Source of the DNA: Arenicola marina
Lineage: Eukaryota; Annelida; Polychaeta; Arenicolidae
Assembly (NCBI GenBank): GCA_964019135.1
Contig: OZ025260.1
Span: forward strand, 10,286,254 to 10,350,253
Length of the DNA: 64,000 bases
Direction: 5' to 3'
This document shows, piece by piece, positions 3,069 through 57,639 of this stretch. The stretch's first letter is position 1. The number at the start of each line of letters is the position of its first letter. The translations under genes and the position numbers were made by a program. The notes below the pieces were generated by a model. That model did no database searches. It worked only from the letters and a program-made list of their open reading frames with translations, and had not been told where the DNA came from.

Positions 3069-3359
3069 GTACGGAACTGCACCATGCCATAGTCTGCTAT
3101 AGGAATAGCTTCAGCGAGCCACCGCGGTGTGAGGAGGGATCACATATTAACGTGCAATCAGTGGGATACGAGACAAGAGACACGTGCCCAGAGCAGACCT
3201 CATGTGGCCACCCTGCCGTCAACAGAACTCTGCTTGACGTCATCAGGTCTCAGTGCGACGGGGCCACCGAGTGTCTGACCAACACGACTGAGGCATTCTG
3301 GGATAGCGCCATATGCCCTCCCGGAAACTGGGTTGAGGTCTTTTACAGATGTCAGCCTA
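3069..3359 (+). CDS. Gene A exon 2: SUEL/galactose-binding-lectin-like domain
   Basis: The 291-bp exon follows acceptor TTCCAG and ends before donor GTAAGA. It starts by completing a phase-1 codon. Eight cysteines are visible (VCY, PRC, DTC, TSC, SQC, TEC, AIC, YRC), matching the count typical of rhamnose-binding-lectin domains. N-glycosylation sequons occur at NRT and NTT. The exon has the same length and phase in B, C and D. Confidence 0.88.
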
Positions 3360-6300
3360 GTAAGACGTGTATTGATCAGGATACATATCCCATGTGGAAA
3401 CATTACTTAATGTTGTAGTTATTTGGTGCTTGAGTTTGATGTTTTATGTAAATAAGCGTTTAAATTGCATTCACGTGAAGATGCAACGCCTCTTGGGTCA
3501 TGATGTCCAAGGGTCACGGCACGATGTGCAATCGTCCTTGGATCAATGTGTCTCAAGTGAACAAAACATAGGCCTATGTAATATTGTAATATGGTTCATT
3601 TGTGAAGAATCTTTCTTTTAGAAACCAATTAAACCATGTGAAGCTACCGTAAAATGAAGTCCATAGTTTGTTCGCGGTTTGGCATTGTAGCCAGTAGCCC
3701 ACCATAATTGCATTCACTTCTATTTGCCAGACATGACGTCTGCCACAAACTCTACAACAGCACAAACGTCTCCACCAACGATACCAACGATGCTCTCAAC
3801 AGGTGAGATATCCATTGATAATGTGGAAAGGGATTAATAGTCTACGAATCTATAAAATCTCGTCGGTCGTTATGTCGGTAACCCACTATACTTGCCTTAA
3901 CTTTTATTTGCCAGACATGATGCCTGCCACAAACTCTACAAGTGCACCGACGTCCCCAGCAACACAACAAACTGAGCCAGGTGAGGTATCCATTGGGGTT
4001 TAATAGTCTGCACATCTAGCGAGTCTAGTTCGCCGTTATGTCAGTAATCCATTCACTTTTATTTGCCAGACATGATGCCTGCCACAGCTTCTACAAGTGC
4101 ACCGACGTTCCCAGCAACACAACAAACTGAGCCAGGTGAGATATCCATTGGGGTTTAATAGTCTGCACATCTAGCGAGTCTAGTTGGCCGTTATGTCAGT
4201 AATCCATTCACTATTATTCGCAAGACTCGCCGACTGCGGATCCTGCAACGACTACTCAGATGTCTGCAAGTAATGATGAAACGATGTTCCCGGAAGGTAA
4301 GATCGCCCTTGACGCGAAGCGAGCTTGTATGCCTGCAACTGTCAAGGCATTTGATCTCGCGGGTATGCCTTACCCGCTGATTATGACGTCGTCAATCAAA
4401 ATGCAAAATGTAGGTAGTTCGGAAGAGCGCGGAGGAAGTGGCGGAAGTTTAATGCGAATTTTGTGTTTAGCTTCACGCATTTGACGGTTGTATTATCTGT
4501 CAACGCGTATATTATGCCAGCCTGTAAATAATTAAACATACTTATATTGCTGCCATAGCGACATTTACTCTAGGAGACCCCATCTTGGGTTTTCCATCAG
4601 TAAAGGGCGGTCATCTCTAGTGGTGTCTATTGGAAACAGAGTGAACATTAGAATACGCACTCTGACTTGATCGGCGTTATTTTTTTCAAGAAGGGGAGGG
4701 GGGGGGGGCGCCATGTTTCCATGTTATAACTCAGTGTTTCGTCTCCTTCAGCAATCTGGATTGGGATCCTAGTGGCGGCGTTAGGCGTTACAGTGGCGAT
4801 CACAGTGTTAGCTGTGCTCTGTGTCAGAAGGTAAGCGTTACAGTGGGGTTCACAGTGTTAGCTGTGCTCTGTGTCAGAAGGTAAGCGTTACAGCGGGGAT
4901 CACAGTGATAACTGTGCTCTGTGTCAGAAGGTAAGCGTTACAGCGGGGATCACAGTGATAACTGTGCTCTGTGTCAGATGGTAAGCGTTACAGCGGGGAT
5001 CACAGTGTTAGCTGTGCTCTGCGTCAGAAGGTAAGCGTTACACCGGGGATCATAGTGTTAGCTGTGCTTTGTGTCAGAAGGTAAGCGTTACAGTGGCGAT
5101 CATAGTGCTAGCTGTGCTCTGTGTCAGAAGGTAAGCGTGACAGCGAGGATCACAGTGTTAGCTGTGCTTTGTGTCAGAAGGTAAGGTTACAGCGGCGATC
5201 ACAGTGTTAGCTGTGCTCTGTGTCAGAAGGTAAGCGTTACAGCGGCGATCAGTGTTAGCTGTGCTCTGTGTCAGAAGGTAAACGTTACAGCGGCGATCAC
5301 AGTGTTAGCTGTGCTCTGTGTCAGAAGGTGAGTGTTACAGAGGGGATCACAGTGTTAGCTGTGCTCTGGGTCAGAAGGTAAGCGTTACAGCCCCGATCGC
5401 AGTGTTAGCTGTGCTCTGTGTCAGAAGGTAAGCGTTACAGCGGTGATCACAGTGCTAGCTGTGCTCTGTGTCAAAAGGTAATCGTTACAGCGGCGATGAC
5501 AGTGTTAGCTGTGCTCTGTGTCAGAAGGTAAGCGTTACAGCGGTGATCGTAGTGTTAGCTGTGCTCTGTGTCAGAAGGTAAGCGTTACAGAGGGGATCAC
5601 AGTGTTAGCTGTGCTCTATGTCAGAAGGTAAGCGTTACAGCGGGGATCACAGTGTTAGCTGTGCTCTGTGTCAGAAGGTAAGCGCTACAGCGGGGATCAC
5701 AATGTTAGTTGTGCTCTGTGTCAGAAGGTAAGCGTTACAGCGGGGATCACAATGTTAGCTGTGGTCTGTGTCAGAAGGTAAGCGTTACAGCGGCGATCAC
5801 AGTGTTAGCTGTGATCTGTGTCACAAGGTAAGCGTTACAGCGGCGATCACATTGTTAGCTGTGCTCTGTGTCAGAAGGTAAACGTTACAGCGGCGATCAC
5901 AGTGTTAGCTGTGCTCAGTGTCAGAAGGTGGGCGTAACAGAGGAGATCACAGTGTTAGCTGTGCTCTGGGTCAGAAGGTAAACGTTACAGCGGCGATCAC
6001 AGTGTTAGCCGTGCTCTGTGTCAGAAGGTAAGCGTTACAGCCCCGATCGCAGTGTTAGCTGCGCTCTGTGTCAGAAGGTAAGCGTTACAGCGGTGATCAC
6101 AGTGTTAGCTGTGCTCTGTGTCTAAAGGTAAGCGTTACAGCGGGGATCACAGTGATAACTGTGCTCTGTGTCAGAAGGTAAGCGTTACAGCGGGGATCAC
6201 AGTGATAACTGTGCTCTGTGTCAGATGGTAAGCGTTACAGCGGGGATCACAGTGTTAGCTGTGCTCTGCGTCAGAAGGTAAGCGTTACACCGGGGATCAT

Positions 6301-9300
6301 AGTGTTAGCTGTGCTTTGTGTCAGAAGGTAAGCGTTACAGTGGCGATCATAGTGCTAGCTGTGCTCGTGTCAGAAGGTAAGCGTTACAGCGGCGATCAGT
6401 GTTAGCTGTGCTCTGTGTCAGAAGGTAAGCGTGACAGCGAGGATCACAGTGTTAGCTGTGCTTTGTGTCAGAAGGTAAGGTTACAGCGGCGATCACAGTG
6501 TTAGCTGTGCTCTGTGTCAGAAGGTAAGCGTTACAGCGGCGATCAGTGTTAGCTGTGCTCTGTGTCAGAAGGTAAACGTTACAGCGGCGATCACAGTGTT
6601 AGCTGTGCTCTGTGTCAGGAAGGTGAGTGTTACAGAGGGGATCACAGTGTTAGCTGTGCTCTGGGTCAGAAGGTAAGCGTTACAGCCCCGATCGCAGTGT
6701 TAGCTGTGCTCTGTGTCAGAAGGTAAGCGTTACAGCGGTGATCACAGTGCTAGCTGTGCTCTGTGTCAAAAGGTAATCGTTACAGCGGCGATGACAGTGT
6801 TAGCTGTGCTCTGTGTCAGAAGGTAAGCGTTACAGCGGTGATCGTAGTGTTAACTGTGCTCTGTGTCAGAAGGTAAGCGTTACAGAGGGGATCACAGTGT
6901 TACCTGTGCTCTATGTCAGAAGGTAAGCCTTACATCGGTGATCACAGTGTTAGCTGTGGTCTGTGTCAGAAGGTAAGCGTTACAGCGGTGATCACAGTGT
7001 TAGCTGTGCTCTGTGTCAGAAGGTAAGCGCTACAGCGGGGATCACAATGTTAGTTGTGCTCTGTGTCAGAAGGTAAGCGTTACAGCGGGGATCACAATGT
7101 TAGCTGTGGTCTGTGTCAGAAGGTAAGCGTTACAGCGGCGATCACAGTGTTAGCTGTGATCTGTGTCACAAGGTAAGCGTTACAGCGGCGATCACATTGT
7201 TAGCTGTGCTCTGTGTCAGAAGGTAAACGTTACAGCGGCGATCACAGTGTTAGCTGTGCTCAGTGTCAGAAGGTGGGCGTTACAGAGGGGATCACAGTGT
7301 TAGCTGTGCTCTGGGTCAGAAGGTAAACGTTACAGCGGCGATCACAGTGTTAGCTGTGCTCTGTGTCAGAAGGTAAGCGTTACAGCCCCGATCGCAGTGT
7401 TAGCTGCGCTCTGTGTCAGAAGGTAAGCGTTACAGCGGTGATCACAGTGTTAGCTGTGCTCTAGGTAAGCGTTACAGCGGCGATGACAGTGTTAGCTGTG
7501 CTCTGTGTCAGAAGGTAAGCGTTACAGCGGTGATTATAGTGTTAGCTGTGCTCTGTGTCAGAAGGTAAGCGATACAGAGGGGATCACAGTGTTAGCTGTG
7601 CTCTGTGTCAGAAGGTAAGCGTTAAAGAGAGGATCCCAGTGTTAGCTGTGCTCTGTGTCAGAAGGTAAGCGTTACAGCGGCGATCACAGTGTTAGCTGTG
7701 TTCTGTGTCCGGAGGTAAGATATACTGCCGTGATCACAGTGTTTGCTGTGCTCTGTGTCAGAAGTTAAGCGTTACAGCGAGGATCACAGTGTTAGCTGCG
7801 CTCTGTGTCACAAGGTAAGCGTTACAGCGGCGATCACAGTGTTAGCTGTGCTCTGTGTCAGACGGTAAGCGTTACAGCGGGGATCATAATGTTAGCTGTA
7901 CTCTGTGTCAGAAGGTAAGCGTTACAGCGGTGATCACAGTGTTAGCTGTGCTCTGTGTCAGAAGGTAAGCGTAACAGCGGGGATCACAGTGTTAGCTGTG
8001 CTCTGTGTCAGACGGTAAGCGTTACAGCGGGGATCACAGTGTTAGCTGTGCTCTGTGTCAGACGGTAATCTTTACCGCGGGGATCATAGTGTTAGCTGTG
8101 CTCTGTGTCAGAAGGTAAGCGTTACAGCGTGGATCACAGTGTTAGCTGTGCTCTGTGTCAGACGGTAAGCTACACAGCGGAGATCACAGTGTTAGCTGTG
8201 CTCAGTGTCAGAAGGTGGGCGTTACAGAGGAGATCACAGTGTTAGCTGTGCTCTGGGTCAGAAGGTAAACGTTACAGCGGCGATCACAGTGTTAGCTGTG
8301 CTCTGTGTCAGAAGGTAAGCGTTACAGCCCCGATCGCAGTGTTAGCTGCGCTCTGTGTCAGAAGGTAAGCGTTACAGCGGTGATCACAGTGTTAGCTGTG
8401 CTCTGTGTCTAAAGGTAAGCGTTACAGCGGGGATCACAGTGATAACTGTGCTCTGTGTCAGAAGGTAAGCGTTACAGCGGGGATCACAGTGATAACTGTG
8501 CTCTGTGTCAGATGGTAAGCGTTACAGCGGGGATCACAGTGTTAGCTGTGCTCTGCGTCAGAAGGTAAGCGTTACACCGGGGATCATAGTGTTAGCTGTG
8601 CTTTGTGTCAGAAGGTAAGCGTTACAGTGGCGATCATAGTGCTAGCTGTGCTCTGTGTCAGAAGGTAAGCGTTACAGCGGCGATCAGTGTTAGCTGTGCT
8701 CTGTGTCAGAAGGTAAGCGTGACAGCGAGGATCACAGTGTTAGCTGTGCTTTGTGTCAGAAGGTAAGGTTACAGCGGCGATCACAGTGTTAGCTGTGCTC
8801 TGTGTCAGAAGGTAAGCGTTACAGCGGCGATCAGTGTTAGCTGTGCTCTGTGTCAGAAGGTAAACGTTACAGCGGCGATCACAGTGTTAGCTGTGCTCTG
8901 TGTCAGAAGGTGAGTGTTACAGACGGGATCACAGTGTTAGCTGTGCTCTGGGTCAGAAGGTAAGCGTTACAGCCCCGATCGCAGTGTTAGCTGTGCTCTG
9001 TGTCAGAAGGTAAGCGTTACAGCGGTGATCACAGTGCTAGCTGTGCTCTGTGTCAAAAGGTAATCGTTACAGCGGCGATGACAGTGTTAGCTGTGCTCTG
9101 TGTCAGAAGGTAAGCGTTACAGCGGTGATCGTAGTGTTAACTGTGCTCTGTGTCAGAAGGTAAGCGTTACAGAGGGGATCACAGTGTTAGCTGTGCTCTA
9201 TGTCAGAAGGTAAGCCTTACATCGGTGATCACAGTGTTAGCTGTGGTCTGTGTCAGAAGGTAAGCGTTACAGCGGTGATCACAGTGTTAGCTGTGCTCTG

Positions 9301-12300
9301 TGTCAGAAGGTAAGCGCTACAGCGGGGATCACAATGTTAGTTGTGCTCTGTGTCAGAAGGTAAGCGTTACAGCGGGGATCACAATGTTAGCTGTGGTCTG
9401 TGTCAGAAGGTAAGCGTTACAGCGGCGATCACAGTGTTAGCTGTGATCTGTGTCCCAAGGTAAGCGTTACAGCGGCGATCACATTGTTAGCTGTGCTCTG
9501 TGTCAGAAGGTAAACGTTACAGCGGCGATCACAGTGTTAGCTGTGCTCAGTGTCAGAAGGTGGGCGTTACAGAGGGGATCACAGTGTTAGCTGTGCTCTG
9601 GGTCAGAAGGTAAACGTTACAGCGGCGATCACAGTGTTAGCTGTGCTCTGTGTCAGAAGGTAAGCGTTACAGCCCCGATCGCAGTGTTAGCTGCGCTCTG
9701 TGTCAGAAGGTAAGCGTTACAGCGGTGATCACAGTGTTAGCTGTGCTCTAGGTAAGCGTTACAGCGGCGATGACAGTGTTAGCTGTGCTCTGTGTCAGAA
9801 GGTAAGCGTTACAGCGGTGATTATAGTGTTAGCTGTGCTCTGTGTCAGAAGGTAAGCGATACAGAGGGGATCACAGTGTTAGCTGTGCTCTGTGTCAGAA
9901 GGTAAGCGTTAAAGAGAGGATCCCAGTGTTAGCTGTGCTCTGTGTCAGAAGGTAAGCGTTACAGCGGCGATCACAGTGTTAGCTGTGTTCTGTGTCCGGA
10001 GGTAAGATATACTGCCGTGATCACAGTGTTTGCTGTGCTCTGTGTCAGACGTTAAGCGTTACAGCGAGGATCACAGTGTTAGCTGTGCTCTGTGTCAGAC
10101 GATAAGCGTTACAGCGGGGATCATAATGTTAGCTGTACTCTGTGTCAGAAGGTAAGCGTTACAGCGGTGATCACAGTGTTAGCTGTGCTCTGTGTCAGAA
10201 GGTAAGCGTAACAGCGGGGATCACAGTGTTAGCTGTGCTCTGTGTCAGACGGTAATCTTTACCGCGGGGATCATAGTGTTAGCTGTGCTCTGTGTCAGAA
10301 GGTAAGCGTTACAGCGTGGATCACAGTGTTAGCTGTGCTCTGTGTCAGACGGTAAGCTACACAGCGGAGATCACAGTGTTAGCTGTGCTCTGTGTCCGAA
10401 GGTAAGCGTTACAGCGGGGATCACAGTGTTAGCTCTGCTCTGGGTCAGAAGGTAAGAGCTACAGCGGGGATCACAATGTTAGTTGTGCTCTGTGTCAGAA
10501 GGTAAGCGTTACTGCGGTGATCACAGTGTTAGCTGTGCTCTGTGTCAGAAGGTAAGCGTTACAGCGGGTATCATAGTCTTAGCTGTGCTCTGTGTCAGAA
10601 GGTAGGCGCTACAGCGGGGATCACAGTGTTAGCTGTGCTCTGTGTCACAGGGTAAGCGTTACAGCGGTGATCAGTGTTAGCTGTGCTCTGTGTCAGAAGG
10701 TAAGCGTTACAGCGGGGATCACAGTGTTAGCTGTGCTCTGTGTCACAAGGTAAGCGTTACAGCGGTGATCAGTGTTAGCTGTGTTCTGTGTCAGAAGGTA
10801 AGCGTTACAGCGGCGATCACAGTGTTAGCTGTGTTCTGTGTCAGAAGGTAAGCGTTACAGCGGCGATCACAATGATAGCTGTGCTCTGTGTCAGAAGGTA
10901 AACGTTACAGCGGCGATCACAGTGCTCGCTCTGCTCTGTGTCAGAAGGTGAGCGTTACAGAGGGGATCACAGTGTTAGCTGTGCTCTGGGTCAGAAGGTA
11001 AAGGTTACAGCGGCGATCACAGTGTTAGCCGTGCTCTGTGTCAGAAGGTAAGCGTTACAGCCCCGATCGCAGTGTTAGCTGTGCTCTGTGTCAGAAGGTG
11101 AGCGTTACAGCGATGATCACAGTATTAGCTGTGCTCTGTGTCAAAAGGTAATCGTTACAGCGGCGATGACAGTGTTAGCTGTGCTCTGTGTCAGAAGGTA
11201 AGCGTTACAGCGGTGTTCATAGTGTTAGCTGTGCTCTGTGTCAGAAGGTAATCGTTACAGCCGGGATCACAGCGTTAGCTGTGCTCTGTGTCAGAAGGTA
11301 AGCATTACAGCGGGGATCACAGTGTTAGCTGTGCTCTGTGTCAGAAGGTAAGCGTTACAGCGGGGATCATAATGTTAGCTGTGTTCTGTGCGAGAAGGTA
11401 AACGTTACAGAGGAGATCACAGTGTTAGCTGTGCTCTGGGTCAGAAGGTAAACGTTACAGCGGCGATCACTGTGTTAGCTGTGCTCTGTGTCAGAAGGTG
11501 AGCGTTACAGAGGAGATCACAGTGTTAGCAGTGCTCTGGGTCAGAAGGTAAACGTTACAGCGGCGATCACTGCGTTAGCTGTGCTCTGTGTCAGAAGGTA
11601 AGCGTTACAGCGGCGATGACAGTGTTAGCTGTGCTCTGTGTCAGAAGGTAAGCGTTACAGAGGGGATCACAGTGTCGGCTGTGCTCTGTGTCAGAAGGTA
11701 AGCCTTACATCGGTGATCACAGTCTTAGCTGTGTTCTGTGTCAGAAGGTAAGCGTTACAGAGGGGATCACAGTGTTAGCTGTGCTCTGTGTCAGCAGGTA
11801 AGCGTTACAGAGGAGATCACAGTGTTAGCTGTCCTCTGTGTCAGAAGGTAAGCGTTACAGTGGGGATCACAGTGTTAGCTGTGCTCTGTCAGAAGGTAAA
11901 CCTTGCAGCGGTGATCACAGTGTTAGCTGTGATCTGTGTCAGACGGTAAGCGTTACAGCGAGGATCACAGTGTTAGCTGTGCTCTGTGTCAGACGGTAAG
12001 CGTTACAGCGGGGATCATAGTGTTGGTTGTGCTTTGTGTCAGAAGGTAAGCGTTACAGCGGTGATCACAGTGTTAGCTGGGCTCTGTGTCAGAAGGTAAG
12101 TGCTACAGCGGGGATCACAATGTTAGTTGTGCTCTGTGTCAGAAGGTAAGCGTTACAGCGGGGATCACAATGTTAGCTGTGGTCTGTGTCAGAAGGTAAG
12201 CGTTACAGCGGCGATCACAGTGTTAGCTGTGCTCTGGGTCACAAGGTAAGCGTTACAGCGGCGATCACATTGTTAGCTGTGCTCTGTGTCAGAAAGTAAA

Positions 12301-15300
12301 CGTTACAGCGGCGATCACAGTGTTAGCTGTACTCTGGGTCAGAAGGTAAACGTTACAGCGGCGATGACAGTGTTAGCTGTGCTCTGTGTCAGAAGGTAAG
12401 CGTTACAGCCCCGATCGCAGTGTTAGCTGCGCTCTGTGTCAGAAGGTGGGCGTTACAGAGGGGATCACAGTGTTAGCTGTGCTCTGGGTCAGAAGGTAAA
12501 CGTTACAGCGGCGATGACAGTGTTAGCTGTGCTCTGTGTCAGAAGGTAAGCGTTACAGCCCCGATCGCAGTGTTAGCTGCGCTCTGTGTCAGAAGGTAAG
12601 CGTTACAGCGGTGATCACAGTGTTAGCTGTGCTCTGTGTCTAAAGGTAAGCGTTACAGCGGCGATGACAGTGTTAGCTGTGCTCTGTGTCAGAAGGTAAG
12701 CGTTACAGCGGTGATTATAGTGTTAGCTGTGCTCTGTGTCAGAAGGTAAGCGTTACAGAGGGGATCACAGTGTTAGCTGTGCTCTGTGTCAGAAGGTAAG
12801 CGTTACAGAGAGGATCACAGTGTTAGCTGTGCTCTGTGTCAGAAGGTAAGCGTTACAGCGGCGATCACAGTGTTAGCTGTGTTCTGTGTCCGGAGGTAAG
12901 ATATACTGCGGTGATCACAGTGTTTGCTGTGCTCTGTGTCAGAAGTTAAGCGTTACAGCGGGGATCACAGTGTTAGTTGTGCTCTGTGTCACAAGGTAAG
13001 CTTTACAGCGGCGATCACATTGTTAGCTTTGTTCTGTGTCAGAAGGTAAACGTTACCGCGGCGATCACAGTGTTAGCTGTGCTCAGTGTCAGAAGGTGGG
13101 CGTTACAGAGGGGATCACAGTGTTAGCTGTGCTCTGGGTCAGAAGGTAAGCGTTACAGCGGCGATCACAGTGTTAGCTGTGCTCTGTGTCAGAAGGTAAG
13201 CGTTACAGCCCCGATCGCAGTGTTAGCTGCGCTCTGTGTCAGAAGGTAAGCGTTACAGCGGCGATCACAGTGTTAGCTGTGTTCTGTGTCAGAAGGTAAG
13301 CGTTACAGCGGCGATCACAATGATAGCTGTGCTCTGTGTCAGAAGGTAAACGTTACAGCGGCGATCACAGTGCTCGCTCTGCTCTGTGTCAGAAGGTGAG
13401 CGTTACAGAGGGGATCACAGTGTTAGCTGTGCTCTGGGTCAGAAGGTAAACGTTACAGCGGCGATCACAGTGTTAGCCGTGCTCTGTGTCAGAAGGTAAG
13501 CGTTACAGCCCCGATCGCAGTGTTAGCTGTGCTCTGTGTCAGAAGGTGAGCGTTACAGCGATGATCACAGTGTTAGCTGTGCTCTGTGTCAGAAGGTAAG
13601 CGTTACAGCGGGGATCATAGTGTTAGCTGTGTTCTGTGCGAGAAGGTAAACGTTACAGAGGAGATCACAGTGTTAGCTGTGCTCTGGGTCAGAAGGTAAA
13701 CGTTACAGCGGCGATCACTGTGTTAGCTGTGCTCTGTGTCAGAAGGTGAGCGTTACAGAGGAGATCACAGTGTTAGCTGTGCTCTGGGTCAGAAGGTAAA
13801 CGTTACAGCGGCGATCACTGCGTTAGCTGTGCTCTGTGTCAGAAGGTAAGCGTTACAGCGGCGATGACAGTGTTAGCTGTGCTCTGTGTCAGAAGGTAAG
13901 CGTTACAGCGGTGATCATAGTGTTAGCTGTGCTCTGTGTCAGAAGGTAAGCGTTACAGAGGGGATCACAGTGTCAGCTGTGCTCTGTGTCAGAAGGTAAG
14001 CCTTACATCGGTGATCACAGTCTTAGCTGTGTTCTGTGTCAGAAGGTAAGCGTTACAGAGGGGATCACAGTGTTATCTGTGCTCTGTGTCAGAAGGTAAG
14101 CGTTACAGAGGAGATCACAGTGTTAGCTGTCCTCAGTGTCAGAAGGTAAGCGTTACAGCGGTGATCACAGTGTTAGCTGTGCTCTGTGTCAGAAGGTAAG
14201 CGCTACAGCGGGGATCACAATGTTAGTTGTGCTCTGTGTCAGAAGGTAAGCGTTACAGCGGGGATCACAATGTTAGCTGTGGTCTGTGTCAGAAGGTAAG
14301 CGTTACAGCGGCGATCACAGTGTTAGCTGTGCTCTGGGTCACAAGGTAAGCGTTACAGCGGCGATCACATTGTTAGCTGTGCTCTGTGTCAGAAAGTAAA
14401 CGTTGCAGCGGCGATCACAGTGTTAGCTGTACTCAGTGTCAGAAGGTGGGCGTTACAGAGGGGATCACAGTGTTAGCTGTGCTCTGGGTCAGAAGGTAAA
14501 CGTTACAGCGGTGATCACAGTGTTAGCTGTGGTCTGTGTCAGAAGGTAAGCGTTACAGCGGCGATGACAGTGTTAGCTGTGCTCTGTGTCAGAAGGTAAG
14601 CGTTACAGCGGTGATTATAGTGTTAGCTGTGCTCTGTGTCAGAAGGCAAGCGTTACAGAGGGGATCACAGTGTTAGCTGTGCTCTGTGTCAGAAGGTAAG
14701 CGTTACAGAGAGGATCACAGTGTTAGCTGTGCTCTGTGTCAGAAGGTAAGCGTTACAGCGGCGATCACAGTGTTAGCTGTGTTCTGTGTCCGGAGGTAAG
14801 ATATACTGCGGTGATCACAGTGTTTGCTGTGCTCTGTGTCAGAAGTTAAGCGTTACAGCGGGGATCACAGTGTTAGCTGTGCTCTGTGTCACAAGGTAAG
14901 CGTTACAGCGGCGATCACATTGTTAGCTTTGTTCTGTGTCAGAAGGTAAACGTTACCGCGGCGATCACAGTGTTAGCTGTGCTCAGTGTCAGAAGGTGGG
15001 CGTTACAGAGGGGATCACAGTGTTAGCTGTGCTCTGGGTCAGAAGGTAAGCGTTACAGCGGCGATCACAGTGTTAGTTGTGCTCTGTGTCAGAAGGTATG
15101 CGTTACAGCCCCGATCGCAGTGTTAGCTGCGCTCTGTGTCAGAAGGTAAGCGTTACAGCGGTGATCACAGTGTTAGCTGTGCTCTGTGTCTAAAGGTAAG
15201 CGTTACAGCGGCGATGACAGTGTTAGCTGTGCTCTATGTCAGAAGGTAAGCGTTACAGCCCCGATCGCAGTGTTAGCTGTACTCAGTGTCAGAAGGTGGG

Positions 15301-16740
15301 CGTTACAGAGGGGATCACAGTGTTAGCTGTGCTCTGGGTCAGAAGGTAAACGTTACAGCGGCGATCACAGTGTTAGCTGTGCTCTGTGTCAGAAGGTAAG
15401 CGTTACAGCCCCGATCGCAGTGTTAGCTGCGCTCTGTGACAGAAGGTAAGCGTTACAGCGGTGATCACAGTGTTAGCTGCGCTCTGTGTCTAAAGGTAAG
15501 CGTTACAGCGGCGATGACAGTGTTAGCTGTGCTCTGTGTCAGAAGGTAAGCGTTACAGCGGTGATTATAGTGTTAGCTGTGCTCTGTGTCAGAAGGCAAG
15601 CGTTACAGAGGGGATCACAGTGTTAGCTGTGCTCTGTGTCAGAAGGTAAGCGTTACAGAGAGGATCACAGTGTTAGCTGTGCTCTGTGTCAGAAGGTAAG
15701 CGTTACAGCGGCGATCACAGTGTTAGCTGTGTTCTGTGTCCGGAGGTAAGATATACTGCGGTGATCACAGTGTTTGCTGTGCTCTGTGTCAGAAGTTAAG
15801 CGTTACCGCGGGGATCACAGTGTTAGCTGTGCTCTGTGTCAGAAGGTAAGCGTTAAAGCGGGAATCACAGTGTTAGCTGTGCTCTGTGTCAGAAGGTAAT
15901 CGTTACAGCCGGGATCACAGCGTTAGCTGTGCTGTATGTATATAAATAATAGTATAAATAAATATATATATGTATATATATATATTGACCATATACATGT
16001 ATTTTAGACCTTTAGTTTATCAGGTTGGGTTGCCGTTTTGTTCGTGACGAGAATTGTCTCAATTATCTTTGTGGTAGCAACAATAAATACCCAACAATGT
16101 ATGATGATGGGAATGCCTCGACATGTCATGTATGTGTTAAGTATGTTAAGTATGTGTCCCTCGCTCAGCTGGTGAGCGGGCTGCAGAGTAAAAGGTCGTG
16201 GGTTCGCACTTTGGCACATGCACCTGGAACAAGTGTCGTCCATCCGTAGTTCACTGTCGCGGGAGGTTTCTTGGTCCACTTTTACCTGCATGTGCACAAA
16301 AGCGGCTTAAAACACGGACAGAAGATCAATGGAATAGCTTTATTTCTTATTTCGCCAGGAGGAGAAAGAAGGAATTGGGAGAGACTGTTGGTGAGTCAGG
16401 GACCCCCAGGGGCGGCCAGACCACCAGCCCCCATCCAGGGAGTTCTGGTCTGCTGAACCCTAACTACGAACAGTCGGACGCAATCATACAAGGGTCACGT
16501 CCTGACCGCCAGGGGGCGTATGATCGCCAAGGGGCGTATGACCGTCCCACGGACCCGTATACTGTCGTGCGGAGGCCAGACTCAGCGCACGATGGAAACA
16601 TGGGGGAGAATTCCAACATACCGGGGTCACATTCTGACCGCCAGGTGGCGTTTCACCGTCCCAAGGACCCGTATACTGTCGTCCGGAGGTCAGACTGTCC
16701 GGATGATTTAAACATGCGAGAAAATTCGGCTTATAATTGA
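3069..16740 (+). CDS. Gene A: SUEL-lectin-like single-pass receptor, 5' end missing
   Basis: Spliced model: 3069-3359, 3731-3802, 3915-3980, 4070-4135, 4225-4296, 4752-4830, 16359-16740. The first (signal-peptide) exon is not seen. The exons sum to 1028 bp, which needs a first exon ending in phase 1, as in B, C and D. Domains in order: an eight-Cys SUEL/galactose-binding-lectin-like domain with the signature RSQCDGATEC, a Ser/Thr/Pro-rich stalk from four micro-exons, a transmembrane helix ending AVLCVRR, and a 126-aa tail. The tail has NPNYEQ (NPxY type), GAYDRP and two DPYTVV motifs. Known for the family: SUEL domains bind galactose or rhamnose. Inferred: a type I surface receptor with a tyrosine-based sorting or signalling tail. 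The last intron (11.5 kb) is almost entirely minisatellite. Exon joins are predicted from phase and paralogs, not from transcripts. Confidence 0.82.
3731..3802 (+). CDS. Gene A exon 3: Thr-rich stalk micro-exon
   Basis: A 72-bp phase 1-1 exon between acceptor TTTGCCAG and donor GTGAGA. It reads MTSATNSTTAQTSPPTIPTM and onward, a mucin-like sequence likely to be O-glycosylated. It is related to the next two exons through ATNST and the conserved upstream intron end. Confidence 0.75.
3915..3980 (+). CDS. Gene A exon 4: Thr-rich stalk micro-exon
   Basis: A 66-bp symmetrical (phase 1-1) exon with acceptor TTTGCCAG and donor GTGAGG, reading MMPATNSTSAPTSPATQQTE. It could be skipped or included without changing the frame. 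It is nearly identical to exon 5. Confidence 0.75.
4070..4135 (+). CDS. Gene A exon 5: duplicated Thr-rich stalk micro-exon
   Basis: A 66-bp phase 1-1 exon with acceptor TTTGCCAG and donor GTGAGA, reading MMPATASTSAPTFPATQQTE. It lies exactly 155 bp after exon 4, and the adjoining introns match as well, so exon and intron were duplicated together. Confidence 0.75.
4225..4296 (+). CDS. Gene A exon 6: last stalk micro-exon
   Basis: A 72-bp phase 1-1 exon reading DSPTADPATTTQMSASNDET and onward, ending at donor GTAAGA. The acceptor is the weaker TTCGCAAG, in the position of TTTGCCAG in the preceding exons. The flanking intron resembles that of exons 4 and 5. Confidence 0.65.
4752..4830 (+). CDS. 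Gene A exon 7: transmembrane segment
   Basis: A 79-bp exon after acceptor TCCTTCAG encoding IWIGILVAALGVTVAITVLA then VLCVRR, a hydrophobic helix with a basic stop-transfer end. It ends in phase 2 at donor GTAAGC, as in genes B and C. Its last 46 bases plus the donor are the template for the 50-bp array that follows. Confidence 0.87.
4831..15934 (+). repeat. 50-bp minisatellite carrying a splice donor in every unit
   Basis: About 220 tandem copies of a 50-bp unit fill the last intron of gene A. Each unit starts with GTAAGCGTTACAG and ends with CTGTGTCAGAAG, so it repeats the last bases of the transmembrane exon (4785-4830) plus its donor. Most units keep the strong donor string AGAAGGTAAGC. 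Each also contains CACAG-tgttag-CTGTG, a small hairpin. Higher-order blocks are visible: the rare variant TATACTGC recurs at about 7721, 10008, 12902, 14802 and 15752, and the last two spacings (1900 and 950) are exact multiples of 50. Long open frames do not persist, because the unit contains TAA. Confidence 0.95.
15935..16145. other. AT-rich microsatellite and intron end of gene A
   Basis: A TA-rich tract at about 15945-15990 ends the 50-bp array and is followed by unremarkable intron sequence. Confidence 0.6.
16146..16345 (+). repeat. tRNA-derived SINE-like copy
   Basis: CTCGCTCAGCTGGTGAGCGG resembles a tRNA A box, and GGTCGTGGGTTCGCAC is a good B box about 35 bp later. The tail CGGCTTAAAACACGGAC is shared with the copy at 23985-24125 (GTAGCTTAAAACACCGAC). 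The copy sits just upstream of the tail exon of gene A. Confidence 0.6.
16359..16740 (+). CDS. Gene A last exon: cytoplasmic tail with repeated tyrosine motifs
   Basis: Acceptor TTTCGCCAG is followed by one base that completes the arginine codon of the transmembrane exon, then RRKKELGETV, then 126 residues in all to a TGA. The tail has an internal duplication: SRPDRQGAYDRQGAYDRPTD followed by PYTVVRRPDS, and later SHSDRQVAFHRPKD followed by PYTVVRRSDC. Motifs are NPNYEQ (NPxY), YDRP (YDxP, SH2-adaptor type) and two YTVV (YxxV). These are known endocytic or phosphotyrosine-binding patterns; their use here is inferred. Confidence 0.83.
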
Positions 16741-16880: not shown

Positions 16881-17420
16881 GTGCATACTGAAGTATCACA
16901 ATGTTGTACGTGTATTGAAGTATCAGTGCTATACAGGTCTACTGAAGTACCAGTGCTATACAGGTCTTCTAAAGTATTAGTGTTATAGACGTCTTCTGAA
17001 GTATCATTGTTATACACGTCTACTGAAGTATCAGTGCTATACAGGTCTACTGAAGTATCAGTGCTATACAGGTCTACTGAAGTATCTGTGCTATACAGGT
17101 CTTCTAAAGTATTAGTGTTATAGACGTCTTCTGAAGTATCTTGGTTATACACGTCTACCGAAGTATCAGTGCTATACAAGTCTACTGAAGTATCAGTGCT
17201 ATACAGGTCTTGTAAAGTATTAGTGTTATAGACGTCTTCTGAAGTGTCATGGTTATACACGTCTACTGGAGTATGAGGGTTATACAGGTCTGCTGAAGTA
17301 TCAGTGTTATACAGGTATACTGAAGTATCAATGTTATATAGGTCTACGGAAGTGTGTGTTATATAGGTCTACTGAAGTATCATTGTTATACATGTCTACT
17401 GAAGTATCAGCGTTACAGAC
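16881..17420. repeat. 27-bp minisatellite, copy 1
   Basis: Tandem units of about 27 bp such as GAAGTATCAGTGCTATACAG plus GTCTACT. Open frames on both strands come from the nine-codon period and are not credible genes. Confidence 0.9.
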
Positions 17421-17588
17421 GTCTTCATAAGTATTAGTGTTAGGCATGCAAACTGACGTATCAGAGTCATGCATCCATACTTAAGTATCTGTGTTGTATG
17501 TGACGACTGATTAAAAGCCCTTACAGACAGACCGTTACGTGCTCTTGTGTAGTGATTGTGTGACGTGATCGTCAACCTCAAACTGACC

Positions 17589-21340: not shown

Positions 21341-21396
21341 TACCAGGGACATATGACGTTGATGTCAGACTTTTGGTTTGTGACTTTTAAGGTTTT

Positions 21397-43500: not shown

Positions 43501-46196
43501 CCCTGACCAGGGTTGTGTACCAGTAATCCTGCCCTGACCAGGGTTGTGTACCATTAATCCTCCACTGACCAGGGTTGTGTACCAGTAATCCTCCACTGAC
43601 CAGGGTTGTGTACCAGTAATCTTTCCCTGACCAGGGTTGTGTAACACTAATCCTCCCCTGATCAGGGTTGTGCAGCAGCAATCCTCCCCTGACCAGGGTT
43701 GTGTACCAGTAATCCTCCCCTGACCAGGGTTGTGTACCAGCAATCCTCCCCTGACCAGGGTTGTGTACCAGTAATCTTCCCCTGACCAGGGTTGTGTACC
43801 AGTGATCCTCCCCTGACCAGGGTTGTGTACCAGTAATCTTCCCCTGACCAGGGTTGTGTACCAGTAATCCTCCCCTGACCAGGGTTTTGTACCAGTAATC
43901 TTCCCCTGACCAGGGTTGTGTACCAGTAACCCTCCCCTGACCAGGGTTGTGTACCAGTAATCCTCCCCTGACCAGGGTTGTGTACCAGTAATCCTCCTCT
44001 GACCAGGGTTGTGTACCAGTAATCCTCCCCTGACCAGAATTGTTTATTTTATGATCCTCTCTTGACCAGGATTTTATGCTACCAATTCTCCCGTGATTCT
44101 CGGAAACGAACGCACCGACACATAGTCTTGCCGATTTAAATCACAATGCTCGTAGTCTTGCCGACTGACGTCACAATGCTCATTGTGTTGCAGAGTTTCG
44201 TCACGCCACGCTGTGCCGTGGACGCAGCTTCGCGGAGCCGCCACAGTGCGGCGAGCGATCCTTTATTCACGTCATATCCGTTTCCTCGGAGATCATGGAA
44301 TCCTGTTCCGATGTCGCCACATCCTGCGCCGACGCTTCCGGAAGCAGTCTCAGTTTCTACGAGACGGTGCGAGTCAGGTGCGAAGGGGAGTCCGCATGTC
44401 TGGCAAGCACGCCGGAAGCTTTCTGGAGCGATGTGACTTGCCCTCCAGGCAACTGGATCGACGTCTTCTACAGGTGCAGTCCAGGTATGTATAGTCAATG
44501 GCTTCCCGCCGTGGCCGAGTGGATTCAGCACCCCGGTACCTACATCTGAGGCGTGTCACCCGCCATCTTTTGTTGTCCATTTTACTGTATGATTACCAGA
44601 GTAATAACGGTATAACCACATGAATGGATAACAGTTAAATTACATTTAAACTATAATAATTAAATACATGTTTGCCCATGCTCCAGCCCAGATGTGGCTA
44701 TATGTGTAGAGAATGACGCCTATATCCCCATGTCTTGGTCACGGAGCCTCCTGTGTACAACAATGGCATACAACTCCAACATTATATGTTTCTGCCTCTG
44801 GTCGCAGTTGAGCTTCCCGCGACTGAGCTGCCGCTGGAAGAGGTCCCGCCGTCTACCACACATGACGTGGTCACTACCGCCGAGTTGCCTGCTGGGACAA
44901 AGCCGGTCGACGTCGCAGCGAATAGACAAGACCCACCGAACGAGGCCAACTGTAGTGGTTCGTAAAACCTTATATCAATTCACAAGCCTATTTTTAAGAA
45001 TCAAATGGAGAACCTAAATTGCTGACTAAATGCGGTCTGTTTTTTTATCAGCCGCTCGCAAGTAAACCAGTTAACTGTGATAATGTCTCCCCTTCCAGGC
45101 TTGCTGATCGGCTTCGTGATGTCCATGGCGTGGTCCCTGCTGCTCACAACAACCCTATTGGTCATGTGCGTCAAGAGGCAAGTCATATATTTCGCCGTGA
45201 ATAACATGGCCGTGACTCTGGCTAAGTCTCGCTCACCTATCTCCCCGTAAATAACATGGCCGTGACTCAGGCTGAGTCTCGCTCGCCTATCTCTCCATGA
45301 ATAACATGGCCGTGACTCAGGCTGAGTCTCGCTCACCTATCTCTTCGTGAATAACATGGATGTGACTGGCTGAGTCTCGCTTACCTATCTCACCGTGAAT
45401 AACATGGCCGTGACTCTGGCTGAGTTTCGCTCACCTATCTCTTCGTGAATAACATGGATGTGACTGGCTGAGTCTCGCTGACCTATCTCACCGTGAATAA
45501 CATGGCCATGACTCTGGCTGAGTTTCGCTCACCTATCTCTTCGTGAATAACATGGATGTGACTGGCTGAGTCTCGCTTACCTATCTCACCGTGAATAACA
45601 TGGCCGCTTATCTATCAAATGACTTGGCCGTGACGCTGATGCATTCAGGTCACAGGGCACTAGGCGGGGGCAACATGGTTATTTGGGCGTTTGCACATTG
45701 GTCTATCCAACATAATTATATGCCATTTAAGGTGACGCCCCCCCCCCCCCGCCCACTAACTAACTAAAGTGTACCCACTTCCCTTTTCAAATCCTGAATC
45801 TGCGCGAGATTCCTTGATGTCTTAATACCTTGCTCTTACCTTTATAATCGATATTAGACATACGCCTAAAAAATCATTCTTAAATATACACTGCACATGC
45901 AAACTAAAACAGTTTTATATTTGTATGTATATATATATTTTCACAGACAACGCCAAGCGCCAACAGAATCCATTAGCGAGGATGCTGAAAATCACTCGAA
46001 CGCGACGAAGAACTCTGTCCGAGGGCACTACGAGATTCCAGTGCGCATGAACTTCAATGCCAAGGCTTACAATGGACTGGACATTTTCGACAAAACCAAG
46101 ACTATTGGGATGCATGCGCAGCTGGGGAGACAAGACACTTTCTGTTATCCCTATGAGGAGCTTGATAACCTGAAACCTCCCAATTACACCGAATAA
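25512..46196 (+). CDS. Gene B: SUEL-lectin-like single-pass receptor, complete
   Basis: Spliced model: 25512-25575, 44194-44484, 44808-44957, 45099-45177, 45947-46196; 834 bp, 277 residues. Residues 1-21 are a signal peptide (ELFLLLALSPLLG). About 22-119 form an eight-Cys SUEL-like lectin domain with VRVRCEGESAC. About 120-168 are a Pro/Thr/Glu-rich stalk, 170-194 the transmembrane helix, and 195-277 the tail. Tail tyrosine motifs are HYEIPV, AYNGLD and YPYEEL. Intron phases equal those of A and C. Intron 1 is 18.6 kb and mostly minisatellite. The intron after the transmembrane exon uses a GC-AG donor. Likely a surface lectin receptor; ligand and signalling partner are unknown. The donor of exon 3 (GTTCGT) is weak, so 44957 is the least certain boundary. 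Confidence 0.83.
25604..38875 (+). repeat. 58-bp GC-rich minisatellite in intron 1 of gene B
   Basis: About 229 tandem units of 58 bp run for 13.3 kb. Each unit contains ACCTCGGTACTGTTATTGGG, GGTCCAGCACGGGCGCTAGG and GCTCGCGGGCCCTGGGTC. Four G runs per unit could form a G-quadruplex on the + strand. Higher-order duplications are visible: 26285-27340 recurs 1507 bp later, and 29212 recurs 1276 bp later (22 units). The 37.8-38.6 kb part is very homogeneous (TTATTAGGGG variant), so that part spread recently. Repeated open frames in this array are not genes. Confidence 0.95.
38930..39300 (+). repeat. Degenerate 20-bp minisatellite in intron 1 of gene B
   Basis: Imperfect units of about 20 bp such as GGTAACCGCGTGCCGCTAGA, with TAATTACGTG variants. 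They begin soon after the 58-bp array ends. Confidence 0.75.
39301..41145. other. Unique part of intron 1 of gene B
   Basis: No exon supported. Around 40005-40080 the string GAGCGGGAGTGCATTCG matches the end of the foldback element at 51420-51882. A SINE-like copy lies at 40235-40410. A poly-C tract is near 40775. Confidence 0.45.
40235..40410 (-). repeat. tRNA-derived SINE-like copy, minus strand
   Basis: The reverse complement reads CCGGTAGCTCAGTGGGTTAG then AGCGCTCG, a clear tRNA A-box region, with a degenerate B box (GGTGGCTCGCGCC) about 45 bp further on. The body is too diverged to be a working tRNA. Confidence 0.5.
41146..44060 (+). repeat. 31-bp minisatellite made of splice-acceptor-like units
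   Basis: About 93 units of 31 bp built from CCAGGGTTGTGTACCAGTAA and TCCTCCCCTGA. In each unit the pyrimidine-rich TCCTCCCCTGACCAG followed by G looks like a 3' splice site, with CTGAC as a possible branch motif. The array ends about 130 bp before exon 2 of gene B. Minus-strand open frames (TGTQPWSGEDYWYT type) come from the repeat. Confidence 0.93.
44194..44484 (+). CDS. Gene B exon 2: SUEL/galactose-binding-lectin-like domain
   Basis: Acceptor GTGTTGCAG and donor GTATGT bound 291 bp, the same length and phase as in A, C and D. Eight cysteines are kept (TLC, PQC, ESC, TSC, VRC, SAC, VTC, YRC), and so is CPPGNWIDVFYRC. The domain is the most diverged of the four. It carries RCEGESAC where A, C and D have QCDGATEC. 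Confidence 0.87.
44500..44560 (+). other. tRNA A-box-like fragment in intron 2 of gene B
   Basis: GCCGTGGCCGAGTGGATTCA resembles the 5' part of a tRNA-Leu or tRNA-Ser, but no B box follows. A SINE remnant or chance. Confidence 0.25.
44808..44957 (+). CDS. Gene B exon 3: Pro/Thr/Glu-rich stalk
   Basis: Acceptor CTGGTCGCAG; the exon reads ELPATELPLEEVPPSTTHDV then VTTAELPAGTKPVD and onward. It is 150 bp long if the phase-1 donor GTTCGT is used. A better-looking donor GTAAAA five bases later would shift the transmembrane exon out of frame, so it is not chosen. Confidence 0.65.
45099..45177 (+). CDS. Gene B exon 4: transmembrane segment with GC donor
   Basis: A 79-bp exon reading LLIGFVMSMAWSLLLTTTLL then VMCVK, after acceptor CCTTCCAG. 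Length and phase equal those of A and C. The donor is AAGAG followed by GCAAGT, a consensus GC-AG donor in place of GT. Confidence 0.84.
45190..45605 (+). repeat. 48-50-bp minisatellite just after the transmembrane exon of gene B
   Basis: About eight units containing GTGAATAACATGGCCGTGAC and CTCGCTCACCTATCTC. First units start at 45201, 45251, 45301 and 45351, so the period is 50 bp. Units share CTTCGTGA....CATGGC.GTG and CTCAC with the upstream exon, in order. Confidence 0.87.
45947..46196 (+). CDS. Gene B exon 5: cytoplasmic tail
   Basis: Acceptor TATTTTCACAG, then QRQAPTESISEDAENHSNAT to GHYEIPVRMNFNAKAYNG, ending DNLKPPNYTE and TAA. The phase matches the transmembrane exon. The tail has no clear similarity to those of genes A or C apart from several spaced tyrosines. 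YEIP and YEEL fit general SH2-binding and sorting patterns. Confidence 0.8.
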
Positions 46197-46231
46197 CCAC
46201 ATACCACCTATCTATGGTGACATGTGAAGGC

Positions 46232-53950: not shown

Positions 53951-56900
53951 GTAAGCAGACACTATATAGTAGTTTGAGCTTCAAAATAAGTCAGAGAAAG
54001 GACTGAATAAGATATATTCGTAAACCTGGCAGCCACGGCGCTACGCGTCTCGGACCTTCGGGTTCTACAAATCTGTCTGATCTCCTTTCTCCATGAGTTT
54101 AACTACAGCATCCAACAGTAGAATGTACTGACCTCTGACTGACTCACATAGGGTCTGTAAGTGACATCACAGACAGCGCGCGTTCACCTCCAGCGAATCC
54201 GGTTTTGGGTACATGACGCTTCACCGCCCCATATACAAAGCATAGGCAGCTCTTTGTAATGGCGTGAAACGCACAGAAAACCAGCGTCTTGCGATTTAAA
54301 ACTAGTACGAGTATGAAGGTACACCCCCAAAAATTTATTCCATATGGTTTTCAAATCTAACATTGCATTCATATCTCAAACATCAGTGAGTCTAGTTCGA
54401 GGCCCATAGTAAAGTATAGGGACCCGCTGACGCGTTGTACCAAGAATGGTTGTTTCTAGAGGTGAGCGCGCGCTGTCTGTGACGTCACTGACAGACCCTA
54501 TTGCGAATCGTTTTATTCAGCTCCGTACGTTCACTCATTCATCGTCAACCTTGGTTCCTGGTATAGAACTGCACCATGCCACAGTCTGCTATAGGAATAG
54601 CTTCCGCCATCCACCGCGGTGTGACGAGGGGTCACATATTTACGTGGAATCAGTGACATACGGCATAAATAATACGTGCCCAGAGGATTCCCGTTGTGAC
54701 CACCCTGCCGTCAACAGAACTCATCAACAGGATGAAGAACATGCAATTGTTCTCGTCGTATACAAATTAATAGCCGTGTTAACACTAATGTGTCCATTAT
54801 GTATATGACATGGTATTATAATTATGTGTATGTCATCTGTCATTTGTCTTTTCATCTGATGTCATAATAGTTTTACAGAAACATAACATAATAGTTATAC
54901 GACCATCGTTTGTTCCAGGTACAGAGCTACACTATGCCACAGTCTGCCTTAGGAATAGCTTCAGCGAGCCACCGCGGTGTGAGGAGGGATCACATATTAA
55001 CGTGCAATCAGTGGCGTTCGAGACAAGAGACACGTGCCCGGAGGAGTCCTCCTGTGGCCACCCTGCCGTCAACAGAACTCTGCTTGACGTCATCCGGTCT
55101 CAGTGCGACGGGGCCACCGAGTGTCTGACCAACACGAATGAGGCATTCTGGGATAGCGTCATATGTCCTCACGGAAACTGGATTGGCGTCTTTTACAAAT
55201 GTCACACATGTAAGTATTACGCACATGTAAGTATTACGCACCCGTTATTGTATATCCGTGAATTGAGCTTCAGACAATTGAAGTGGCTGTTTTTCCACCA
55301 GCCTAGGAACGGCGTAGGCTCAGTATGCCACCACAGTACAGCAGTGGCGGGTCTGGCCCCCCTCGCCCCCTGCCCACTGATTTTTATGTTACTTCTGAGC
55401 GAAGAAGCAATTTTTTAAACGAAAGGGCAAACCACCCAAGCGATCTTTTGCAGAGTAGAACTGGCCAAAGTGGAATCCCCACCTCTTTAAAATCCTGGAT
55501 CCATCCTTGTCACAGGGATATCAGGATCACTTTCATATCACAGTTTATTCCAGGATAAAATGTCCGGGACCCAGGACCTCAGTTTTGATACCTTGATGAA
55601 TGCGTTGTCTGTGACTTTATCGAATAAAAGGCGTAACCTATTATAAACTCTACTATTTGACTATCGTAAAAAACTTAAGGAAAAAAACAATGTAAAGCAC
55701 CAACACTGACACTTAATCGCTATAATGTGCCTTTTCGGACAGTGAGTGATTTGTCACGTGTGTTTTCAGATACTCAGCTCCCTGCAACAACCGTTCGACT
55801 GATCGACTATACCACTTCAGGTTTGAATACACAGCTGACAGAGATCACAACTGACCAGGCGGCGCTAGTGGACAATACCAATCAAAGGTTGACCGCCCTC
55901 AACTTAGGTTAGGAATGGCATGGGTCTCGGTGTGGGAAAACTGTTGCGAGGATTGGTCAAAGGGCTGTACACATGAATATACCCCCATCCCCTCCTCCCG
56001 CCAATGGGCAGATCGTTGGTTTGGAAGTCGTCTTAACACGTGTCCAAGACTCGAACCCAACCTTTCCTGCCCCAGCCCAAAATATTTCCAATCCGTATCG
56101 TTCCTGTTTGTACGGAAGGGGGGGGGGGGGGCAATTGTTAATTATCCTGATATGTTATATTATGAAATCTGGGTGTAGATGTCGTGCTAAGACAAATCGT
56201 GTTAACTTACATGAAAGGCAATCTTACGTGTTGGATCATTCATTTCAGCCCTGATATCAGCGGTTTGTGTGGCCATGGGAATTATCACTCTCCTCAGCAT
56301 TATCCTCGCCGTGGTTTGTATCAAGAGGTCAGTAATCAGCTGTAGGCATACACTACTTCCAAGGGTAGAACCTAGATTTTGAATGTAAATCACCATGCAG
56401 CCATAATCGTAACGCTGCCTATGTATAATGCCTAGGCGAGCGATAGTCACGAGGTGTACTATTTTTCCTCTGGGCTTATATAGCAGTCTGTTATAATTAA
56501 TTTTGGATTTACGACATATTAATATCGTAACTTATCTGAATCATTTCATTTTAGTGATAGTAATAGATATATTCATTTCCAGGCAAGCTGAAAATATGTA
56601 TTGAAACCAGGGCTTGTGGAGCCGCATAAACGCTTTATTTTAAGCACTTAAAAGCACTAACACCAGGGGCAGATCTAGGAATTTGCCAAGGGGGGGAAGG
56701 GGGTTGCTCTCTGAAAACTTGCGACAGGGGGAGGGGGGGATGGTCTCTGAAAAACTTGCGACCGGGGGGGGGGGCGCTGCTCGGAGAAGCCGACTTTAAC
56801 AGTGTATGTTCAGGTCAGGTTCCCAAGGGGGGGGGTTGCAACCCCCGTAACCCCCCCCCCCCTAGATCCGCCCCTGAACACATCCACTGATTGAGGTACA

Positions 56901-57188: not shown

Positions 57189-57639
57189 ACAGATAACGCC
57201 TGATACTCGGATGTCAGTAATTCAGCACGTACAATTGGATCTGTAGATAATATCTAACAGACTAAATCATTGTCTTCCATGGCTTTCACTCAAACGTTCT
57301 ACATAGAACATTCTATAAAACGCCACGTTAGTGTTTAGCAGGACCCACAACGAATATACCAAAATGTAAACTGTTTCTTGGGCGCATCAGGTTTAGTTGT
57401 CCGGCTAAGAAACCTCCCGACAATGAACTGGTTGGATGAAACTTGTACCAGAGACCGGAACCCGCAAACTCTCGATGTGCATTCAGTTTGCGTACTGAGC
57501 TGGAAAGGCTCCCTGTGACTATGATGACGCAAGAACAACATCAGGAGGGCCCAATGGTTGATAGACGTACTGATCAGTGGCGGATTGCACGAGTCTTATC
57601 AGACTTGGGAGGAGGGGTGGGGGGGGGGGAGGTGAAATC
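57189..57639. other. Presumed 3' flank of gene C
   Basis: No AATAAA is seen close to the stop codon, and no gene or repeat is recognised before the dispersed repeat at 57640. Confidence 0.4.

What the first reader, a model, noticed from the sequence alone, without database searches (positions are those of the whole stretch)
4785..15934. An exon edge and its splice donor amplified about 220 times inside the same intron
The 50-bp unit equals the last 46 bases of the transmembrane exon of gene A (from 4785) plus GTAAG, repeated to 15934. Most units keep AGAAGGTAAGC, a near-ideal 5' splice site. The real donor therefore competes with roughly 220 copies, each preceded by exon sequence. Many units also offer TTACAG upstream, so 37-nt micro-exons are conceivable. 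Use of a later donor would add frame-breaking copies, because the unit contains TAA and 50 is not a multiple of three.
Basis: partly seen in the sequence, partly recalled or inferred. Interest (0 to 1): 0.87.

Follow-up and report, generated by a model that had tools for sequence, protein, structure and literature searches.

The report
Splice-site minisatellite filling a lectin-receptor intron
The end of one exon, together with its splice signal, has been copied about 220 times inside the following intron of an animal lectin-receptor gene; smaller versions of this oddity are known from lancelets as "mirages", and this very large one is a good natural test of how cells pick the right splice site among many copies.

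Summary
A 50-bp array (4785-15933, 224 units) starts inside the transmembrane exon of a lectin gene (gene A, exon 4752-4830). The unit is the last 46 exon bases plus GTAA. Unit 1, which is coding, matches the consensus at 49 of 50 positions; 215 of 224 units keep GT at the donor position; 144 of 224 (the authentic one included) score at least as well as the authentic donor, against 3 of 3629 GTs elsewhere on this strand.

Frame, splice sites and two paralogs in the window support the gene model and show that the intron is older than the array. This is the structure called a "mirage" in lancelets; the host species is not identified here. Best reading: slippage and unequal exchange of an exon edge, tolerated because exon definition picks the first donor.

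Donor 2 would leave the stop 46 nt before the last junction and may escape NMD as a tail-less receptor; untested. No RNA, read or population data were available.

The parts
3069..3359 (+). Gene A lectin exon (SUEL / rhamnose-binding lectin type)
   Evidence: PF02140 E=3.9e-6 at 27.6 bits, below Pfam's cutoff of 31.4; L-rhamnose-binding lectin 5h4s_A E=2.6e-7; splice phases consistent
3731..4296 (+). Gene A: four short Ser/Thr-rich exons (3731-3802, 3915-3980, 4070-4135, 4225-4296); exons 2 and 3 are a tandem exon duplication
   Evidence: translation and splice sites; exon 2 vs 3 62/66 identical; 155-bp repeat
4752..4830 (+). Gene A transmembrane exon (AIWIGILVAALGVTVAITVLAVLCVRR across the junctions), phase 2 end; source of the repeat
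   Evidence: open frame through seven exons to a stop, one leading base assumed; the TM exon is also 79 nt in paralogs B and C
4785..4834 (+). Repeat unit 1: last 46 nt of the exon plus GTAA; contains the authentic donor at 4831
   Evidence: 49/50 to array consensus
4835..15934 (+). Remaining 223 units of the 50-bp array, the last truncated
   Evidence: 215 of 224 units (unit 1 included) keep GT at the donor position
4881..4882 (+). Donor 2 (AAGGTAAGC): use would give a tail-less protein with the stop 46 nt before the last junction
   Evidence: geometry computed; use not shown
15935..16358 (+). Non-repeat remainder of the intron with the authentic acceptor (TCTTATTTCGCCAG)
   Evidence: acceptor score 8.9, reached by 0 of 2709 AGs outside the array on this strand
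16359..16740 (+). Gene A cytoplasmic tail exon (RRKKELG...NPNYEQ...two DPYTVVRR...stop)
   Evidence: frame-continuous translation
45099..46196 (+). Paralog B TM exon (45099-45177), 769-nt intron with an unrelated 98-bp array, tail exon 45947-46196: same phase and place, GC-type donor
56249..57190 (+). Paralog C TM exon (56249-56327), 596-nt intron with no large array (only a 37-bp unit repeated 2.5 times), tail exon from 56924: same phase and place

Best explanation
It is a mirage-type minisatellite: a tandem array seeded by duplication of an exon's 3' edge with its 5' splice site, grown by slippage and unequal exchange inside a pre-existing intron. Shown here from sequence: the source (gene A's own exon), the unit, an intron older than the array, wholesale retention of donor motifs, block duplications inside the array, and an in-frame stop right after the true donor. 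Inferred: the first donor is normally used because the 79-nt exon is recognised as a unit across the exon, so the donor nearest the upstream acceptor wins; rare use of later donors gives tail-less, mostly decayed transcripts. That growth of the intron to 11.5 kb further protects the first donor is a guess, since the intron without the array may already have been long enough for exon definition.
For: Unit 1 is 49/50 identical to the consensus, paralog edges only 19 and 22 of 46. The same phase-2 intron after a 79-nt TM exon is present in paralogs B (769 nt) and C (596 nt), so the intron predates the array. The nine donor columns are no more conserved than others (0.944 vs 0.934; 2409 of 5000 random 9-column sets at least as conserved), as expected if donors are kept by descent. 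No trend of divergence with distance from the exon (Spearman 0.03, p=0.63) and no neighbour effect, with block duplications such as 22 units matching at lag 46 with 3 mismatches in all: block-wise exchange. GCGTTA occurs in the exon just before unit 1 (4778-4783), at unit 1's start and at the consensus unit junction, a possible slippage seed. The authentic acceptor scores 8.9, the best of 1253 AGs inside the array 4.1. Five minigenes with two identical donors each used the upstream one exclusively under exon definition, with flanking introns of 365 nt (PMC9225289, results section part 1 of 2). Lancelet mirages are reported not to disturb splicing.
Against: No RNA evidence for this gene. Predicted folding makes the authentic donor one of the least open, rank 214 of 223, so nothing intrinsic favours it. 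GT itself is somewhat well kept (0.982; 622 of 5000 random column pairs at least as conserved), which is not significant but does not exclude constraint. Three of gene A's seven acceptors score below the best AG in the array, and one below the mean of the GTCAG|AAG sites, so splicing into the array is not excluded by score. In PMC9225289 the downstream donor is preferred in about 60% of all events before strength is matched, and two donors were tested, not over a hundred. Decoy donors or decoy exons elsewhere can cause intron retention, though context-dependently (PMC8706089 abstract; PMC12017769 passages).
Confidence: 0.77

Rival explanations
1. Regulated switch: the array lowers accurate use of donor 1, and its length sets the ratio of full-length to tail-less or unspliced receptor RNA.
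For: 144 of 224 donors score at least as high as the real one, itself included; any later donor gives VRR-stop just after the membrane span; donor 2 leaves the stop 46 nt before the last junction, under the recalled 50-55 nt NMD limit, donor 3 leaves 96; authentic donor predicted poorly accessible; decoy sites promote intron retention in mammals; a C. elegans minisatellite is over-represented near alternative splicing regions (PMC4039745 abstract).
Against: No clear sign of selection on donor columns; lancelet mirages are reported not to disturb splicing; identical donors under exon definition use the first.
Confidence: 0.1
2. Assembly artefact: a short array inflated by the assembler.
For: PMC3087553 reports a mirage that appears aberrantly assembled in a draft genome; longest exact non-overlapping internal repeat is 594 bp.
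Against: 117 distinct types among 224 units and blocks with differing mismatches; even a shorter array would keep the exon-edge unit.
Confidence: 0.06
3. Functional U1-binding array protecting a long intron from premature polyadenylation, or feeding recursive splicing (GTCAG|AAG|GTAAG in many units).
For: 0 AATAAA and 0 ATTAAA in 11.1 kb of array; 171 GTCAG|AAG sites with mean acceptor score 1.0, max 4.1, within the range of gene A's real acceptors, -0.7 to 8.9.
Against: The intron is long only because of the array; absence of polyA signals follows from the unit sequence; no clear constraint on donor columns. Protection by U1 is recalled knowledge, not tested.
Confidence: 0.04

Closest known systems
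Amphioxus 'mirages' (globin, Adh3, TnC, PGBD5 genes)
   Same: Minisatellite-like tandem duplication spanning an exon-intron boundary, many units with AG/GT splice signals (PMC3087553 passages; PMC3902484 passage)
   Different: Here 224 copies and 11.1 kb; globin gene BflGb6 has 6 and 3 units of 150-160 bp in two haplotypes, Adh3 units are 10-72 bp; host species not identified here; the original Adh3 paper was not held under the id tried, so its copy numbers were not seen
Intron gain by tandem genomic duplication
   Same: Tandem duplication of sequence carrying splice signals (PMC4974935, search listing only)
   Different: Here the intron already existed, as the paralogs show; the array grew inside it
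Decoy exons / decoy donor sites causing intron retention (OGT, VWF)
   Same: Surplus splice sites that may engage the spliceosome without being used (abstract; passages)
   Different: Those decoys are few and function-tested; the OGT decoy exon has weak 3' and 5' sites, here the donors score high and the acceptors low to moderate

Membership tests
Mirage (exon-intron boundary minisatellite) | Tandem repeat unit spans an exon-intron boundary | tested here: met
   unit = 46 exon nt + GTAA
Mirage (exon-intron boundary minisatellite) | Units carry splice signals | tested here: met
   215 of 224 units keep GT at the donor position
Mirage (exon-intron boundary minisatellite) | Regular mRNA splicing despite the copies | not testable with these tools
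   no RNA data
Mirage (exon-intron boundary minisatellite) | Length polymorphism, somatic instability | not testable with these tools
   one haplotype; block duplications suggest past exchange
Mirage (exon-intron boundary minisatellite) | Host is a lancelet | tested here: inconclusive
   no genome held; 0 exact matches to a 30-mer of the unit in viral contigs, which says little; no species marker found
SUEL / rhamnose-binding lectin domain protein | Match to the domain profile | tested here: inconclusive
   PF02140 E=3.9e-6, but 27.6 bits is below the curated cutoff of 31.4; PDB L-rhamnose-binding lectin E=2.6e-7
Intron gain by tandem duplication | Intron absent before the duplication | tested here: not met
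   same phase-2 intron in paralogs B and C without this array

The most novel reading that the evidence does not exclude
The array is a length-tunable splicing rheostat: among about 140 equivalent donors, donor 2 alone yields a transcript expected to escape NMD, encoding a lectin receptor cut off right after its membrane anchor, so unstable array length would vary the ratio of signalling to decoy receptor between individuals or cells.
Probability: 0.08. Interest if true: 0.85.

Novelty: new member of a known kind. Interest (0 to 1): 0.5.

Why it matters
It is a natural experiment on 5' splice-site choice: one true donor followed by over a hundred equal copies in nearly identical sequence context, where only the first keeps the protein. 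Whether cells choose it by position across the exon, by order of transcription or by another rule can be read directly from RNA of this gene. It also shows how large an exon-boundary minisatellite can become, and that tandem duplication in this gene has made both extra exons (the Ser/Thr-rich ones) and a boundary array.

Tried and rejected
Exon origin of the other arrays: the 58-bp, 98-bp and 62-bp arrays start 19, 11 and 35 nt after an exon 3' end, but their units do not match the exon edge in register (shuffles at or above: 197, 535 and 802 of 1000). A local match of the 58-bp unit to its left flank scored 18, reached by 18 of 300 shuffles, so a weak relation there is not excluded. Selection for donors: no clear sign. 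Directional growth from the exon: not seen. Accessibility favouring the true donor: the opposite. Rfam families at gathering threshold and ARAGORN tRNAs in the window: none reported. Species identification: failed (no genome held, 0 matches; literature listings did not help). Boundary minisatellites outside lancelets: I recognised none among the titles and abstract starts listed (8 of 8; 20 of 66; 3 of 3; 12 of 14; 12 of 385; 8 of 8); these lists are partly capped and I opened only eight papers, so this is no claim of absence. Passages of PMC2206037 and PMC2632668 mention tandem repeats in amphioxus genes, the latter also partial exons with splice sites in introns; neither was needed for the argument.

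Limits of my own calls: donor and acceptor weights are recalled human-like frequencies, not fitted to this species, and scored on the + strand only. In one search three paralog acceptors scored None because their coordinates were one base off. In one search the label 'D sp' fell on a copy near 53951, not on gene D near 61469. In one search the nine arrays were picked by hand and did not follow one cut-off (a 20-bp array of lower score was in; a 155-bp and a 130-bp array were out); one search repeats the test with every TRF array of score 400 or more.

Full report
Observation. TRF finds a 50-bp array at 4785-15933 with 223.7 copies. Aligning the stretch cyclically to the consensus gives 224 units, 208 of them exactly 50 bp, mean identity 0.935. 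Unit 1 (4785-4834) is the last 46 bases of an exon plus GTAA and differs from the consensus at one position. Sequence upstream of 4785 shows no match to the unit beyond chance (158 of 300 shuffles at or above), so the repeat starts inside the exon. The exon edges of paralogs B and C match the consensus at only 19 and 22 of 46 positions, gene A's own at 45 of 46. The finding is therefore correct, with the small change that the unit is 46 + 4 bases.

The gene. Gene A reads in one frame, with one leading base assumed, through seven exons: a lectin exon (3069-3359; PF02140 E=3.9e-6, below Pfam's curated cutoff; PDB L-rhamnose-binding lectin E=2.6e-7), four Ser/Thr-rich exons, the transmembrane exon 4752-4830, and a tail exon 16359-16740 with NPNY and two DPYTVV stretches. 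Its signal-peptide exon was not sought systematically and is not identified. The donor at 4831 (AAG|GTAAGC) joins 16359 in phase 2. The intron is 11,528 nt (4831-16358), of which about 96% is array. Two paralogs in the window have a TM exon of the same length (79 nt), the same phase and an intron at the same place, 769 and 596 nt long. The intron is thus older than the array.

Splice signals. 215 of 224 units keep GT at the donor position; 135 have the authentic 9-mer; 144 (authentic one included) score at least as high as it, against 3 of 3629 GTs in the rest of the + strand (recalled human-like weights). The nine donor columns are not more conserved than others (0.944 vs 0.934; 2409 of 5000 random column sets at least as conserved); GT alone stands at 0.982 (622 of 5000 random pairs at least as conserved) (units 2 to 223). 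Retention by descent suffices. Acceptors inside the array: 183 TTACAG sites average -6.7 (best -3.6), 171 GTCAG|AAG sites average 1.0, best of 1253 AGs 4.1. The authentic acceptor scores 8.9, reached by 0 of 2709 AGs outside the array; the other six acceptors of gene A score -0.7 to 5.5, two of them below 3 and a third, 3.6, still below the best array AG. Predicted folding leaves the authentic donor among the least open (rank 214 of 223), which speaks against an intrinsic advantage.

Consequence of a wrong choice. The frame at the exon end is AGA AG|G TAA, so any later donor or intron retention completes one Arg codon and stops. The product would be a receptor without cytoplasmic tail. For donor 2 the stop lies 46 nt before the last junction, for donor 3 96 nt. 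By the recalled 50-55 nt rule only donor 2 might escape decay. This is geometry, not evidence of use.

Array dynamics. The 224 units show 117 distinct types, the 223 full ones 116; the two longest of five block duplications of 8 or more units are 22 and 14 units at lag 46, each with 3 mismatches; the longest exact repeat is 594 bp. Distance to unit 1 does not change along the array (Spearman 0.03, p=0.63) and neighbours are no more alike than distant units. This fits block-wise unequal exchange from a common source close to the exon sequence. GCGTTA occurs in the exon just before unit 1, at the start of unit 1 and at the consensus unit junction; it may have seeded the first slip (inference).

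Mechanism. Five published minigenes with two identical donors under exon definition (365-nt flanking introns) used the upstream donor exclusively, and in pairs of near-equal strength genome-wide the upstream donor is preferred under exon definition and the downstream one under intron definition; before strength is matched the downstream donor is preferred in about 60% of events (PMC9225289, results section part 1 of 2 read). I infer that donor 1 wins here by proximity to the exon's acceptor. The intron before gene A's TM exon is 455 nt, and the non-repeat remainder of the array intron is 424 nt; both exceed 365 nt, so exon definition may have applied before the array grew, and I cannot say that growth helped. 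The untested alternative is partial mis-splicing or retention, known for decoy sites in mammals (PMC8706089 abstract; PMC12017769 passages); a C. elegans minisatellite is over-represented near alternative splicing regions (PMC4039745 abstract).

Known kind. Tandem duplications spanning intron-exon boundaries were named mirages in lancelets; passages of PMC3087553 describe 6 and 3 units of 150-160 bp in two haplotypes of a globin gene, unit sizes of 10-72 bp in Adh3, no interference with regular splicing, and somatic instability at Adh3; a passage of PMC3902484 adds PGBD5 and TnC. The structure here meets the definition; its size is far beyond the globin examples. I could not read the original Adh3 report and cannot say that this is the largest. 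The species is not identified (no genome held).

Neighbouring arrays. Of the twelve TRF arrays with score 400 or more, four begin between 45 nt before and 35 nt after an exon 3' end: the 50-bp one at its own donor, the 58-bp and 98-bp ones after donors of other introns, the 62-bp one after a stop codon. In 20,000 random placements 23 reach four of twelve, and 5 reach four of ten when the duplicated 27/17-bp pair is counted once (an earlier hand-picked set of nine gave 7 of 20,000). At the tighter limit of +20 it is three arrays, with 162 and 91 of 20,000. The cut-offs were chosen after seeing the data and the gene models are mine, so this is a lead only. None of the other three units matches the exon edge in register.

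Noticed in passing
25594-38878, 45188-45606, 46231-47163: Three other minisatellites (58, 98 and 62 bp) begin 19, 11 and 35 nt after an exon 3' end (two donors, one stop codon) without exon-derived units in register; more than random placement gives (post hoc cut-off).
   Followed up: partly
3900-4226: Tandem duplication of a whole Ser/Thr-rich exon with its intron (155-bp period; exons 62/66 identical), phase-symmetric and in frame.
   Followed up: partly
16886-22620: Tandem duplication of a roughly 3-kb segment carrying 27-bp and 17-bp arrays and an open stretch of about 100 codons; the 1.2 kb compared are 95.9% identical (1163 of 1213).
   Followed up: partly
3069-3359, 54919-55209, 4752-4830, 56249-56327: Lectin exons of genes A and C are 90.7% identical and their upstream 200 bp 95%, while their TM exons are only 59% alike: mosaic evolution of the cluster, by conversion or exon shuffling (inference).
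   Followed up: partly
45178-45188: Paralog B's donor after the TM exon is GC-type (GAG|GCAAGT) and a minisatellite starts 11 nt after the exon end.
   Followed up: no
54568-54720 (approximate): Truncated extra copy of the lectin exon upstream of gene C's intact one, seen by reading.
   Followed up: no
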